Shown one piece after another: positions 46,605 through 56,881 of a stretch of 64,000 nucleotides of DNA. The DNA comes from Gymnopilus junonius (taxonomy: Eukaryota > Basidiomycota > Agaricomycetes > Agaricales > Galerinaceae). Each line of letters starts with the position of its first letter. Positions within the stretch are counted from its first letter, which is position 1. Both the position numbers and the translations under genes were made by a program. Where the stretch lies: assembly GCA_015501075.1 (NCBI GenBank), contig JADNYJ010000002.1:62001-126000 (forward strand). Reading direction: 5' to 3'. Below the pieces are notes generated by a model that was not told the origin of the DNA, made no database searches, and saw only the letters and a program-made list of their open reading frames with translations.

Positions 46605-49375
46605 CTAAACTCCATAGTTATTAGTGATAGGGGATCCCAGGGGCCATGTCGTTCCACCAGGAGACACAGAATGGCCAGCGGGCATACGACCAGGTAGAGA
46701 GTGTTGCTCGTAAGGGGGGCTAACTGGCAACGGTGCAGTACTTGAACCTTCCTCAGTTGGTGCGCTGGGTGGTTGATCTTTCCTGAAAAGCGTCGTGTGT
46801 GAGAAAGGATAGAGGGGCACACCGACTTCAAGCGGTTGCTTTTGCGCTGTCATACGGACAATTTCCCTCATGAGGCCTTGCAACAGCCTCTCCTGTCGAG
46901 CTATCGTGATATGTCAAAAAAGACAGACCGTGGGCAGATATCAAGAACCTACTTCCGATGGGCGACCGTTGTCCATATTCCATCATAGCAAAGCTAGTCA
47001 CAAACCAAGTCATCAGAAACGCAATGATCATCATACCGCGCTCGAACCACTGTACCGCAGAACATTGATCTCGCCCCATACGGTTGATTCTTCAGAGTCA
47101 TTGACTTCAATAAAATACTTGCAGAGCTGAACTTGGACCACAGCAGCAAGGTACCAGCATATCTACAAAACTTGGAGGTCAGAAAGAAATCATATAATGT
47201 GAAACACGCACTGTTACGAATGGGTGGAGCCTCGTAATATCCATAGACGTCGCATTTAACGCATAACATGCACTGAGAATACATCGCGCTGCGTGGAGAC
47301 ATCGCATTGTGGACACATTTCCCGGATCTGCAAAATCTATGTAGGGGTTGTGCAGAGTAATGGTCGCCCTATTCTTGTTTCAGCAAGTCGCAGTGGAAAG
47401 ACAAAAGTTCAGCTTACGCATGCGGAATAATGTGAACCATGTATAGATCGGTGTCTAGAGAACTGCCATTGGGCCCATCTACTATCCCGGTATTATTTCT
47501 GAAGATTGGAGGCAAACTGTCAAGAAAATCAGAATAAACTAATTTATCTAGCTCTGTGAAGCCAGGCAAAAAGAAAGGGTTTTGGTTCTTGCTGGGAGGA
47601 GTTGGAGCCCTCAGGTTCCCCCTAACGTTGAAGTCGGTCACTCTGCCGAATAACATCACGGCTTTAATGAGAAGAAGAAAAGAGTCTGTATACTGGGAGG
47701 GATGCCGCGTAAAAATATCGGGTGAAGAAATATCTTGCGGGTTGCTCGGCAGCTGTGTCTGATAAAAAAAAAGGTTGGAAATCATAGCATAAAGATCTAT
47801 TGCAGTCAACGTACCTCTGATTCAAAATCTTCCGTTCTTAGGGGTAGCTCCGTGCCAATGTCTCTTTCGTCGACTGCATGGATCCAGCCACCAACGGATG
47901 CAATGCGGTCAAAGATTATGGTCATCCACCAAGTTCGTCGCCTTGATTCTAGATCGCGCAGGTCTTTGGGAGGCGCTAGATACGCACCCGGAGAACTGTT
48001 TCCATGCGTTGAAAAGGTTCCAGGGTAATTGAGGCGGAGCGGAACCGCGACTCGAGTTTGAAAAGCTGCGAAAATCCATACTTCAACCCATCGGCCTTCC
48101 TGGTAAAAATACCACGAGAGAAGTGTGCATGCCTGCATCACAGAGAAAATATCCTCGCCACTCGCCATTGTTTTGTCAATGTATTGGCGAGTTTTACTGG
48201 CGTGGAACTCTGCGAACTGGTCTCGCCGAGTGCCATCAGGCAACGTCACTATATTTTGGGAGGACCACCTCGAGGCAGCTGCACACTAGATCAAGAATGA
48301 GTATGCCGTCGTGTGAGGAAGAAAGAACACTCAACAATTGCATGAAGAACAGCTGAGTGAGGAAAACCTGGATCTCGAGGAGATAGATGCATAGAAGCCA
48401 TAAATGAGGGTTTGTGAAGTACACGAGACCCGCAAGGATCACATCTAAAGAAAACATCAATGCTAATGACAGATGAGATTTCATGAAAGAATGGATAAAA
48501 AAATGAAACACTCACTAATGGTTCAAAGTTGCCGGGTCAGGCAAGTCAGGGTTCCAGCCCGAAAATAATAGATCCATGAACTGATCAGCGTTGGATCTCA
48601 CATTGACATTCTGCAATTCCGGACTTAAACTTGAGCGAAAGCGGCTGTCAGGGGTGTCAGGATCGATGAGAGTCATCAAGTTGAGTGAAGGCAAGGCAAT
48701 CCCTCCAGTATCAGATTGACGACTCTCAGTACCCACTGCGTTCGAAGGAGGAGTAGAGCGAGAAGCGTTTGGGGGACTTGGCAAAATTGTTTGCTTCTCG
48801 TACAGCTTGCTTTTCAATTCAGCTTTGCCACACATCAGTAATAGTCGGAAGCATATCTGAGGTTCCTGACCTATCTGTTCTTCCAATTCCTTGATCTTTT
48901 CGACTGGGTCGGTATCCGGGGCCAATCTCAGCCCGTCAACAGGATCGTATGAGCATTGTGGTTCCGTCGGGTGACTAGCTCCGTAAGTTATTTAACCTCA
49001 TATACCAGGTGGCTGCCACTTACGCATAACCAACTGGAGCTGGAACGCTGACGAGGGCTTGCCACTGCCTATCGGTATCAAAATCTCAGCCAGGGGCTCA
49101 CCGACAGGTCTGGAGCATAAACTAACTTGACACAAGTCCCGCAGTGCGGGCGTGCAGCGTCACATTTCTGGGCGTTCCATCAGGCCAAAGATGCAGCGTT
49201 AAGCGGAGAGAATTGATGCAACTTGAACGCACGAGTTTTCTTTTCCGACACGAACGACAAGCCTAAGTGCCACTTCGTTCAGCCCAAGATGGTTTAGTTC
49301 CACATTCAAAAAGCAGCATACCTGATTTCTGCGAAGTGCTGGACGAGTGGGGTTTGCGCTAGGTGCCTTGGGCAT
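46605..49375 (-). CDS. Zn2Cys6 transcription factor with fungal_trans region (TF1)
   Basis: Predicted nuclear regulator. Exon 1 (MPKAPSANPTRPALRRNQ) is followed by a 30-nt exon at 49233-49262 (ACRSCRKRKL) and an exon from 49167 (KCDAARPHCGTC), forming the binuclear zinc cluster; the sixth Cys lies in QCSYDPVDG. A coiled coil (VEKIKELEEQI, AELKSKLYEKQ) follows for dimerisation. The middle region has FHTD/HKPSFMASMHL, LLSWYFYQEGRWVEVWIFAA, ESRRRTWWMTIIFDR and WIHAVDERDIGTELPLRTED, typical of the fungal-specific transcription factor domain (PF04082). Exon joins between the fifth and sixth Cys remain unresolved. Similar in organisation and intron positions to the factor at 53881-56881. Confidence 0.85.
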
Positions 49376-53880: not shown

Positions 53881-56800
53881 TCACGCCAGAGACAGGAAAG
53901 AACCTGGTTCATGGAGACTTTCGTGTAAGCTAATGTTGTTGTCCGACTGCGCACTTTCTTCGAACAAAGTATGAAGCACATGGGGCTCAAGCGGACGAGG
54001 AAATGTGATTTGCACTGGTATTCTTGGCGCAGATCCGCAATGCTTCACAATCAAGTCGTCCAACATCTTGGCAAATCGGTGTGCTAACGGAATGCGTTGA
54101 CCAACCTTTGCGATAGCCGAACTACAGATGTGGGTCACTATGAGTCGCAAGAATACAAGGAAGAATAAACTTACTGGACGAAATCGATTTCCGCACGCAA
54201 GGTAGAAACCTGATCTATACTGTTGGCGTCCAGTGCAGCCTGCAAGAACCGAACGAGCACACGGCCGGCAACAAACCAACAGAACTACATTTGCTCAGCA
54301 TCTCGGGGCACTCAGGAGAAGTGAAGTGTTCTCACAGAGCAGAACGAGTCTAGAAGGGTGATGTCATAGCTTGTTGACCATACACTATAGATTAAGTCCA
54401 AGATTGCTCTTGCAGCTGTAAGAATTTTCAAGGCAGATATACACCCAGACTGTCGGACTTCGGCGTGCGGGTCATGGAGCACAACAGTCGCCCTGGAAAT
54501 CGTAAGAAGTGAAGGCGTTAACGGACAATAAGAAAATGTTACATACACATGCGGTATGAGACAGGTGGTATAAAGATGGTTGTCCACAACGTTATCATTT
54601 ATGGGGTTTCTGAGATGACTAGGAAACGAGGCACGGAAGGATGAGACGATGTGATCTAATTCAATGAACGCAGCTGAGCCTCGAGGATCTACTGGTTCGT
54701 CTGAAGATAATGGATCGTCGCTGTAAACTGTTGCAACAGATGGGTCACCCGCAAAATGCTTGGACCTAAAACGTAGATTGAATGCCTTGACCTGGGCTTT
54801 GGGGCAGATTGATCGGTATTCGCAAAATGTAGAACTAAAGTCACTCACAAATCAAGATGGTGCCTTTGATATATAGGATGAAGGAATCTGTTTGGTTCTC
54901 TGGATGCACAAGAAGAAGATCACGGGATTGAGCCCATTGTCGATCTATGGGCTGAACAAGGGTCTGCAAAGTCACTCATGAACACAATGTAAATATTGTG
55001 AAATACTGGCTTACCCCTTGCAAAAATTGGTCTCCTCTGAGAGGCAGCAGCTGAGAAACGTCTTGATTATCAAGACTCAGTGCCCAACCGTTGCCGCAGC
55101 CGTGCTGACGTTCTGTAGCGTAAGCCAACCAGAATGAATTTCTTCTCGTTTCATCCTCAATCACAGTCCTGGCTGGAGGGAGGATAGATGGAGGTCTCTC
55201 TGACTTCGTTATCGAATGAAACGGTGGGCACATATTGAGCCCGAGAGGTACTGCCAACCGCATCGAATGAGCTGATGAGAGAAAAATCTGAAACGACGTT
55301 AGTAGCAAAAGTCACTTTCTTGAACAATACACACATCGACCCATCTTGTCGTGAAAGTCGTTAAGCACTGGCTCAGTTAGGAAATGGGATTGGAACTTAC
55401 CTTCCGTGCGACCAATAGAACCAAGTTAGGATGATATTAGCTGCAACGACGTTTATATTAATTGAAATTAAAGACAAGATAAATGAAATACTGACCCTGC
55501 AAGACTTGAAAGAGGTCCTCTCCTAGTGCATTAAGTCGTTCTGCTGTCTCCTTAGCTAATTTAGCCTGCTGCTCCGCAAACGAATCTGGTCGATTTTGCT
55601 TAATTCGATATTTCTCCAAGAATATTTCATCTGCATTGTTTGTCAGTTATTATTGAGATTATTAGATTATTACGCAGTTTCATACCCGGTGATACTTCAT
55701 CGTAATTTGGGAGAGGGGGAGAGGTCACGGCAGCCGTATACAGACTACCAATAGCACATATGGCATGTAGAACGGGAGCAGAAGGGAATTTATGATGGCT
55801 TGGAGGTAATGAAAGCGAGTTCATGAAAGTTGGGGCATGGAATAGACGGTTTGCATGGGGGTGAAACATAAAAAAAACTTCGACCCTGTTGGAAGTCATC
55901 AAGGATCGTGTAAGTATGTCCAAATTCCCAAAACTCACAGATGTCTGAGTAATTCTGGACCAGGGAGGCCGGGAGGCCAATTAGGCCACATGATATCAGA
56001 ACCGACAGAACTAATGGTGGTGTCACCGACTGATAATGGTGTGGTGCTGGCATGTTGAGGAGGAGAGTGAGAAAAATGGCTCGTCGATGAGGTGCCGTCT
56101 GAATCATTGTGCTGAGGATAGTGAGAGGATGGCGAATCAATTGGATGACTGCTCGACCTGTTTTCAGAGTAATACAAGGATGAGTTGTTTGAATTATTCG
56201 CTGCATTCTCCTTCTGTCGCAAAAGCATTTCAAGCTCATCTAAAAGGCATGATCAAGGGAGGAAAAGGTAGGTGATTGCAGCCGACGGACTTATCCTGTT
56301 TTCCAACCTCTCGTACCGGTTCTTTGGGCCCTCTGGAACATGAGTGTTTACCTCGGCGACTAAAGCAACATTTCAGAATAATAACCACAAATTCTACTCT
56401 CATTAGCATACCATCGTCAAACGTGCATTCAGGCTGGGGTGGCATGGTTACTCCAGGTGGTGCATGAGACACTGCATGTGCATGAGACCGCAGACAGGTT
56501 GAACATGGCCGTTTGGCATCACTAGACAGTCAAATTCGACTTTAGGATACTTTGGAAGATTAAAAGGAAAGATACCATTTCTGAATTCAAGATTAGGCGG
56601 GAAATAGAAGGGGTTTATTCGACGCTCACCAGCTTTCTTCTCCGGCACTTGGGTGGAAATACCGAGGGTCAATACAACTCCGTGGCGTAAGTACCTAGAT
56701 AAAGAACTCACTTGATGACAGGCCTAGCAAACAGGGTGCGTAGAGGTTCAGTATGCTAGAGATCGAACACCGAGATAGCACGGCTTGCCTGGTTCCGCTT

Positions 56801-56881
56801 CAGAACATTGGGATGAGAGCTGAGTGTCATCAGGGGATTCGATGACGTGCGATTAGAGGGCTGCTGGGGTGCTCGGGGCAT
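53881..56881 (-). CDS. Zn2Cys6 transcription factor with fungal_trans region (TF2)
   Basis: Predicted nuclear regulator related to TF1. The zinc cluster is split over five pieces: MPRAPQQPSNRTSSNPLM..KRNQ, then ACHQ (12-nt exon 56712-56723), CRRRKL (18-nt exon 56630-56647), a 5-nt exon 56576-56580 that completes KC, and DAKRPCSTCLRSHAHA..ECTFDD (56412-56521). A coiled coil (LENRVKLQALLTELEMLLRQ) and Ser/His-rich region follow. The fungal_trans region has VFFMFHPHANRLFHAPTFMN, PVLHAICAIGSLYTA, EDETRRNSFWLAYATERQ and LSLDNQDVSQLLPLRGDQF. The C terminus is HESLHEPGSFLSLA. The first intron has a GCAAGC donor. Boundaries of the middle exons are approximate. Confidence 0.85.

What the first reader, a model, noticed from the sequence alone, without database searches (positions are those of the whole stretch)
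56576..56580. Five-nucleotide exon inside a Zn2Cys6 DNA-binding domain
In TF2 the zinc cluster is cut into exons of 12, 18 and 5 nt. The 5-nt exon (AAATG) supplies the Lys and the first two bases of the third Cys codon. It is flanked by clean GAATTCAG and GTATC borders. TF1 codes ACRSCRKRKL in a single 30-nt exon, equal to 12+18 in TF2, and continues KCD without a break. TF2 therefore seems to have gained two introns within the domain. Gene finders will miss this and delete the zinc ligand.
Basis: partly seen in the sequence, partly recalled or inferred. Interest (0 to 1): 0.75.

Follow-up and report, generated by a model that had tools for sequence, protein, structure and literature searches.

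The report
Conserved five-base exon in fungal regulator
A mushroom gene regulator needs an exon only five bases long to complete its zinc-binding DNA-contact domain; this tiny exon appears to be old and shared by other mushrooms, and the public annotation of the gene misses it.

Summary
The window is from Gymnopilus junonius (Agaricales). TF2 (56881-53881, minus strand) reads as a 17-exon, 712-aa Zn2Cys6/Fungal_trans regulator. Its zinc cluster is split into exons of 12, 18 and 5 nt, and the 5-nt exon AAATG lies at 56580-56576. Of 17,128 proteins from the splice paths tried, three have the six-Cys signature, and all three use this exon. A comparable mini-exon arises in 32 of 200,000 shuffles. 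The public protein equals this model except that CHQCRRRKLKC is replaced by SRAISV, so three zinc ligands and the Pfam domain vanish.

The idea of a gain special to this gene is only half right. The splits are extra relative to TF1, but 20 of 25 broken TF2-family models that keep the second half resume exactly at the same TG^T boundary (16 Agaricales including this gene, 3 Gloeophyllales, 1 Boletales), against 0 of 5 for TF1. The intron that makes the 5-nt exon is therefore probably old. Skipping the exon puts TGA at the junction, so the DNA-binding protein needs it. No G. junonius RNA or orthologue DNA could be seen. New member of a known kind: motif-completing micro-exons.

The parts
56789..56881 (-). 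TF2 exon 1, 93 nt, ATG to ...LKRNQ
   Evidence: same N-terminus in public protein P0001
56724..56788 (-). TF2 intron 1, GC-AG, 65 nt (NQ^A); the matching TF1 intron is GT-AG
56712..56723 (-). TF2 exon 2, 12 nt, ACHQ (first Cys)
56648..56711 (-). TF2 intron 2, GT-AG, 64 nt (HQ^C), absent from TF1
56630..56647 (-). TF2 exon 3, 18 nt, CRRRKL (second Cys)
56581..56629 (-). TF2 intron 3, 49 nt (KL^K), position shared with TF1; YTNAY branch-like site 11 nt from its end
56576..56580 (-). TF2 exon 4, 5 nt AAATG: Lys and first two bases of the third Cys codon
56522..56575 (-). TF2 intron 4, 54 nt, phase 2 (TG^T), absent from TF1; weak donor GTATCT
56412..56521 (-). TF2 exon 5, 110 nt, completes the third Cys codon and carries DAKRPCSTC...PEC
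55335..55344 (-). TF2 exon 11, 10 nt; its residues are present in the public model
53881..56881 (-). TF2 gene, 17 exons, 712 aa, Zn_clus + Fungal_trans
46605..49375 (-). TF1 gene, neighbouring paralogue, 13 exons, 706 aa, identical to public P0121; comparison gene

Best explanation
TF2 is a functional Zn2Cys6 transcription factor whose mature mRNA must include the 5-nt exon AAATG. Shown by the sequence: of the splice paths tried, only those with this exon give the six-Cys cluster, and it joins the 18-nt exon to the 110-nt exon with the right phase (0 in, 2 out) for K-C-D. Inferred: in a short-intron fungus the spliceosome pairs sites across each intron (intron definition), so introns 3 and 4 (49 and 54 nt) are removed one after the other and no exon-spanning recognition is needed. 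Inferred from the genetic code and the sequence: skipping the exon, or keeping either flanking intron, gives a stop inside the zinc cluster, so such mis-spliced RNA cannot give a DNA-binding protein from the normal start. The TG^T intron that created the 5-nt exon probably arose early in the TF2 lineage and is kept because the motif it cuts cannot change.
For: Splice-path test: 3 of 17,128 proteins keep six Cys, all 3 with this exon. Shuffles: 32 of 200,000. The whole gene is open in the model, with Zn_clus at 31.9 bits against a cut-off of 21 and Fungal_trans at 38.8 against 23. The public protein agrees with the model everywhere except this spot, so the gene does not look decayed. Of the best 120 of 266 TF2-family proteins, 74 have an intact cluster, and 71 of these 74 read KLKCD. 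Five of the 15 proteins listed only under the source code 'lgn' (P0019, P0026, P0027, P0097, P0120) lie on contigs with only 27-280 nt outside the CDS, too short for the 862 nt of intron seen in TF2; they look like transcripts, and all five read K-C-D. Age: 20 of 25 broken TF2-family models that keep the second half resume exactly at D (19 of 24 without P0001, which is this gene itself), against 0 of 5 TF1-family models (Fisher p = 0.0018 for 20/25), with Ser before D in 15 of the 24 that have a residue there, as reading through AG|T would give. The five models that read K-W after KL (P0033, P0037, P0056, P0084, P0085) all continue with Y, F or W, which T-initial codons code, as reading through AAATG|GT would give. 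Mis-splicing outcomes: exon 4 skipped, stop at codon 42; intron 3 kept, 46; intron 4 kept, 48.
Against: No RNA from G. junonius was available. The donor after the exon (GTATCT) is weak: 52 of 171 decoy GTs in the gene region score as well, although TF1 introns 7 and 11, which the public TF1 protein supports, score lower. The orthologue intron positions are inferred from faulty protein models, not DNA. Outside Agaricales the age evidence is thin: one Boletales model (P0088) and three Gloeophyllales models (P0083, P0085, P0092), of which P0083 and P0085 belong to a second, more distant copy (51-52% identity) while the closer copies of the same species (P0071, P0070) are intact. When TF1 and TF2 are compared on the same contig, TF2 is broken and TF1 intact in 8 of 36 pairs, the reverse in 4 of 36 (p = 0.39), so a higher error rate for TF2 is not significant in paired data. 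Two Hymenochaetales models (P0105, P0117) read into KCD unbroken, so the TG^T intron does not look universal.
Confidence: 0.9

Rival explanations
1. The exon is a regulated switch. Including AAATG gives the DNA-binding form; skipping it, or keeping a neighbouring intron, gives a truncated product or, from a downstream Met (residue 69 of TF2), a 644-aa form without the DNA-binding domain, as reported for Trichoderma Xlr2.
For: A 20-nt micro-exon in the Zn2Cys6 domain of T. virens Xlr2 is reported as included without glucose and not with glucose (PMC11121469). The donor after the 5-nt exon is weak. P0004, an 84%-identical relative on a 2,375-nt contig, starts at the matching Met and has no cluster.
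Against: The downstream Met is found in only 5 of 73 intact models in which that stretch could be located, of 74. P0004 may simply be a contig cut short at its 5' end. No expression data were available.
Confidence: 0.12
2. The 5-nt exon is recent and special to this gene, gained by two intron insertions after the TF1/TF2 duplication.
For: TF1, its neighbour, has neither HQ^C nor TG^T. Five other Zn2Cys6 loci of the same genome (L002-L006, of the eight loci held) read K-C or R-C unbroken; the exon-wise search that found them favours unbroken ones.
Against: TF2-family models in three orders fail at the same phase-2 point (orders of Serpula, Neolentinus, Heliocybe, Gloeophyllum and Gymnopilus; the other genera are Agaricales by recall). 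Skips of exactly ACHQ (P0037, P0065, P0079, P0086) and HQV read-through (P0014, P0029, P0090) suggest the HQ^C split elsewhere too.
Confidence: 0.07
3. The stretch 56629-56522 is one intron, AAATG is chance, and TF2 makes a protein without a normal zinc cluster, as the public model has it.
For: The public model P0001 has no Zn_clus match.
Against: Joining exon 3 to exon 5 gives TGA at once. The public model replaces the most conserved part of the cluster by SRAISV, which occurs in none of the other 239 proteins held. Shuffle and path tests.
Confidence: 0.03

Closest known systems
CYP621A one-nucleotide exon of Fusarium (PMC12940212; parts 1 and 2 of 3 of the text read)
   Same: Ultra-small exon inside an invariant protein motif, needed to restore phase, conserved among orthologues, missed by gene models
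   Different: P450 gene, ascomycetes, 1 nt, backed by RNA reads; here 5 nt, a basidiomycete transcription factor, no RNA seen
Xlr2 20-nt micro-exon of Trichoderma (PMC11121469; abstract, introduction, part 1 of 2 of the Results, and passages read)
   Same: Micro-exon in a Zn2Cys6 domain of a Fungal_trans protein, missed in JGI models
   Different: 20 nt coding PCRRCE with two Cys; inclusion reported to depend on glucose; different gene and an ascomycete; regulation not shown here
Micro-exons of Phanerochaete chrysosporium P450 genes (PMC1184071; three passages read)
   Same: Agaricomycete (recalled), frequent introns of 45-55 bp, tiny exons (shortest 6 bp)
   Different: P450 genes; the passages read do not describe a phase-restoring exon inside a metal-binding motif
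4-bp micro-exon of MPC1 (PMC9929638; start of abstract in search listing only)
   Same: Constitutively included micro-exon whose length is not a multiple of three
   Different: Animal gene, different splicing context (recalled)

Membership tests
Zn2Cys6 (GAL4-type) fungal transcription factor | Six-Cys cluster (Pfam Zn_clus) over its curated cut-off | tested here: met
   31.9 bits against 21 for the spliced TF2
Zn2Cys6 (GAL4-type) fungal transcription factor | Middle homology region (Fungal_trans) | tested here: met
   38.8 bits against 23
Micro-exon | Internal exon of about 30 nt or less bounded by spliceosomal splice sites | tested here: met
   5 nt, AG|AAATG|GT, by sequence and path test
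Micro-exon | Present in mature transcripts | not testable with these tools
   No G. junonius RNA; likely orthologue transcripts read K-C-D but their exon borders are unseen
Switch-like micro-exon (Xlr2 type) | Condition-dependent inclusion giving forms with and without the DNA-binding domain | not testable with these tools
   No expression data
Switch-like micro-exon (Xlr2 type) | Conserved downstream start for a form without the DNA-binding domain | tested here: not met
   Met near that position in 5 of 73 intact models; other possible downstream starts were not tested

The most novel reading that the evidence does not exclude
An ancient, frame-breaking 5-nt exon that carries part of a zinc-ligand codon has been kept across several orders of mushroom-forming fungi because it works as a fail-safe: its inclusion decides whether the DNA-binding domain exists at all, so splicing controls the factor's activity.
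Probability: 0.12. Interest if true: 0.75.

Novelty: new member of a known kind. Interest (0 to 1): 0.48.

Why it matters
It is a clear case of a near-minimal exon cutting the codon of a metal ligand in a DNA-binding domain. It also helps explain why public records of a widely shared Agaricomycete regulator often lack an intact DNA-binding domain: 46 of the 120 listed TF2-family models are not intact, though not all of these need have the same cause. An RNA check per species could correct many records, and the family offers a natural series for asking how the spliceosome handles exons too short for both ends to be bound at once.

Tried and rejected
Searches for orthologue DNA in genome contigs and viral contigs found no relatives. 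The own-genome protein search showed no further copy besides TF1 (11 matches, all on the window's contig). I considered twin introns (stwintrons; search listing only), but AAATG is needed in the mRNA, so it is an exon and not part of a nested intron. I considered that TF2 is a pseudogene and rejected it, because the model is open through 17 exons and agrees with the public protein outside the cluster. I expected TF2 to be broken more often than TF1 in paired contigs: 46 of 120 against 12 of 120 overall (each the best 120 of a longer list, 266 and 229), but paired 8 against 4 of 36, p = 0.39, so I do not claim it. The 36 pairs were picked by eye from equal contig lengths in the tables, so some pairs may be missing. 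Class labels: 21 TF2 models and 7 TF1 models were filed as 'cluster absent' and left out of the resume-at-D test; 8 of the 21 keep parts of the N-terminus or cluster and break off differently (P0018, P0021, P0037, P0056, P0061, P0065, P0086, P0113), P0058 breaks off after NQ, and 12 start after the cluster. KLVCD in place of KLKCD (P0023, P0094, P0095) may be a gene-caller's substitute for the mini-exon; not tested. The literature searches listed no report of this exon; they cover one open-licence library, and most subscription journals are not in it.

Full report
Setting. The window lies in an unnamed 58-Mb genome. Its TF1 protein is identical to the Gymnopilus junonius protein CPB84DRAFT_1885361 (P0121), and TF2 matches CPB84DRAFT_1670239 (P0001) except in one place, so the source is G. 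junonius or a near-identical strain, an agaric. Both genes are on the minus strand.

Observation. TF2 reads 93-12-18-5-110... nt. The 12-nt exon codes ACHQ, the 18-nt exon CRRRKL, and the 5-nt exon AAATG gives Lys plus TG of the third Cys; the next exon starts T-GAT-GCC. The model has 17 exons and 712 aa, with Zn_clus and Fungal_trans over their cut-offs. The first intron is GC-AG and exon 11 has 10 nt.

Chance and alternatives. Splice paths over 56881-56412 were listed: 17,179 stop-free, in-phase paths and 17,128 distinct proteins, of which 1,328 use the 5-nt exon. Scored with a profile of 73 intact orthologue N-termini (built, from P0001-P0120, P0001 not among them), the best is the proposed one (129.3 bits); the best without the 5-nt exon scores 101.5. 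The six-Cys signature occurs in 3 of the 1,328 and in 0 of the other 15,800. Limits: at most 4 introns of 38-300 nt, donors GT or AG|GC. In 200,000 shuffles of the 108 nt between exons 3 and 5, a suitably placed AG|AARTG|GT arose 32 times.

Splice signals. With a small matrix from 24 other introns of TF1 and TF2, the acceptor before the exon scores 6.3 (7 of 169 decoys as good) and the acceptor of intron 4 scores 6.4 (6 of 169). The donor of intron 3 scores 6.3 (0 of 171 decoys); the donor right after the 5-nt exon, GTATCT, scores 2.1 (52 of 171 as good). Both introns have a YTNAY site near the end (11 and 7 nt away). YTNAY as a branch consensus is recalled, not from a call.

What the public model does. 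P0001 equals one intron, 56768-56522, that starts inside the GC-AG intron and deletes exons 2-4. Outside that spot it equals the model, including the residues of the 10-nt exon 11. It has no Zn_clus match. So the warning about gene finders holds for this gene, and the loss is three ligands rather than one.

Age of the exon. No orthologue DNA could be reached, so I read the errors of orthologue models. Among the best 120 TF2-family proteins (of 266), 74 have an intact cluster, 25 keep only the second half, 21 neither; for TF1 (best 120 of 229), 108, 5 and 7. Of the 25, 20 resume exactly at the Asp after the third Cys, 2 at that Cys, 3 at the Lys; of TF1's 5, all keep Lys-Cys (Fisher p = 0.0018). 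One of the 20 is P0001, this gene itself, and one (P0092) is a partial protein that begins at that Asp. Related species share history, so the counts are not independent. The residue before Asp is Ser in 15 of the 24 that have one, as reading through AG|T gives. Five models read K-W and then Y, F or W (P0033, P0037, P0056, P0084, P0085), as reading through AAATG|GT gives. By order, the 20 are 1 Boletales (Serpula, P0088), 3 Gloeophyllales (P0083, P0085, P0092) and 16 with genus names that I take to be Agaricales (Gymnopilus, the others recalled). P0083 and P0085 are a second, more distant copy in their species; the closer copies P0071 and P0070 are intact. Coniferiporia (P0105) and Sanghuangporus (P0117), both Hymenochaetales, read into KCD unbroken. 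Reading: the TG^T intron is old in the TF2 lineage, well supported within Agaricales, thinly outside, and not universal. TF1 and TF2 models share a contig length in at least 36 cases, so the pair is old as well. Against: in those 36 pairs the excess of broken TF2 models is 8 against 4 (p = 0.39).

Transcript-like evidence. Of 15 listed TF2-family proteins whose only source is 'lgn', 10 are intact and 5 lack the cluster. Five of the 10 lie on contigs with 27-280 nt outside the CDS; introns in TF2 sum to 862 nt (3,001 minus 2,139), so these are probably spliced transcripts, and all 5 read K-C-D; two of them (P0097, P0120) are only 50-52% identical. One close relative, P0004 (84%), starts after the cluster on a contig with 458 nt to spare, which may be a cut contig or a form without the DNA-binding domain.

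Mechanism. Skipping exon 4 gives CTG-TGA, a stop at codon 42; keeping intron 3 or 4 stops at codon 46 or 48; skipping exon 2, or exons 2 and 3, stays in frame without the first ligands. I infer constitutive, stepwise splicing by intron definition. A regulated switch, as in Trichoderma Xlr2 (PMC11121469), remains possible but lacks a conserved downstream Met (5 of 73).

Novelty. Exons of 1 nt (Fusarium CYP621A, PMC12940212), 6 bp (Phanerochaete P450s, PMC1184071) and a 20-nt exon in a Zn2Cys6 domain (Xlr2) are in print. A Ganoderma annotation paper also notes trouble with very short exons (PMC11590231, one passage). This 5-nt exon is a new, apparently old and often mis-annotated member of that kind; the eight literature searches listed no report of it.

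Noticed in passing
window 56788-56724 (-): GC-AG intron in TF2 at the position where TF1 has a GT-AG intron; the public model's false donor lies inside it.
   Followed up: partly
window 55344-55335 (-): 10-nt exon 11 of TF2 (WVD region), its residues present in the public model; TF1 has no intron at this place.
   Followed up: partly
window 53740-52500 (-): Gene just downstream of TF2 looks like a prephenate dehydratase (recalled from the translation); four listed orthologue models (P0008, P0030, P0035, P0058) are fused with PF00800, which suggests conserved gene order.
   Followed up: no
P0059, P0106, P0115 (Mycena): TF2-like models carry the name eIF3 subunit H, probably neighbouring genes merged by annotation.
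   Followed up: no
P0023, P0094, P0095: Models read KLVCD in place of KLKCD, possibly a gene-caller's substitute for the mini-exon by the first bases of the intron.
   Followed up: no
window 52400-51804 (-): CCCH zinc-finger protein resembling CPSF30/Yth1 (name recalled, from the translation).
   Followed up: no
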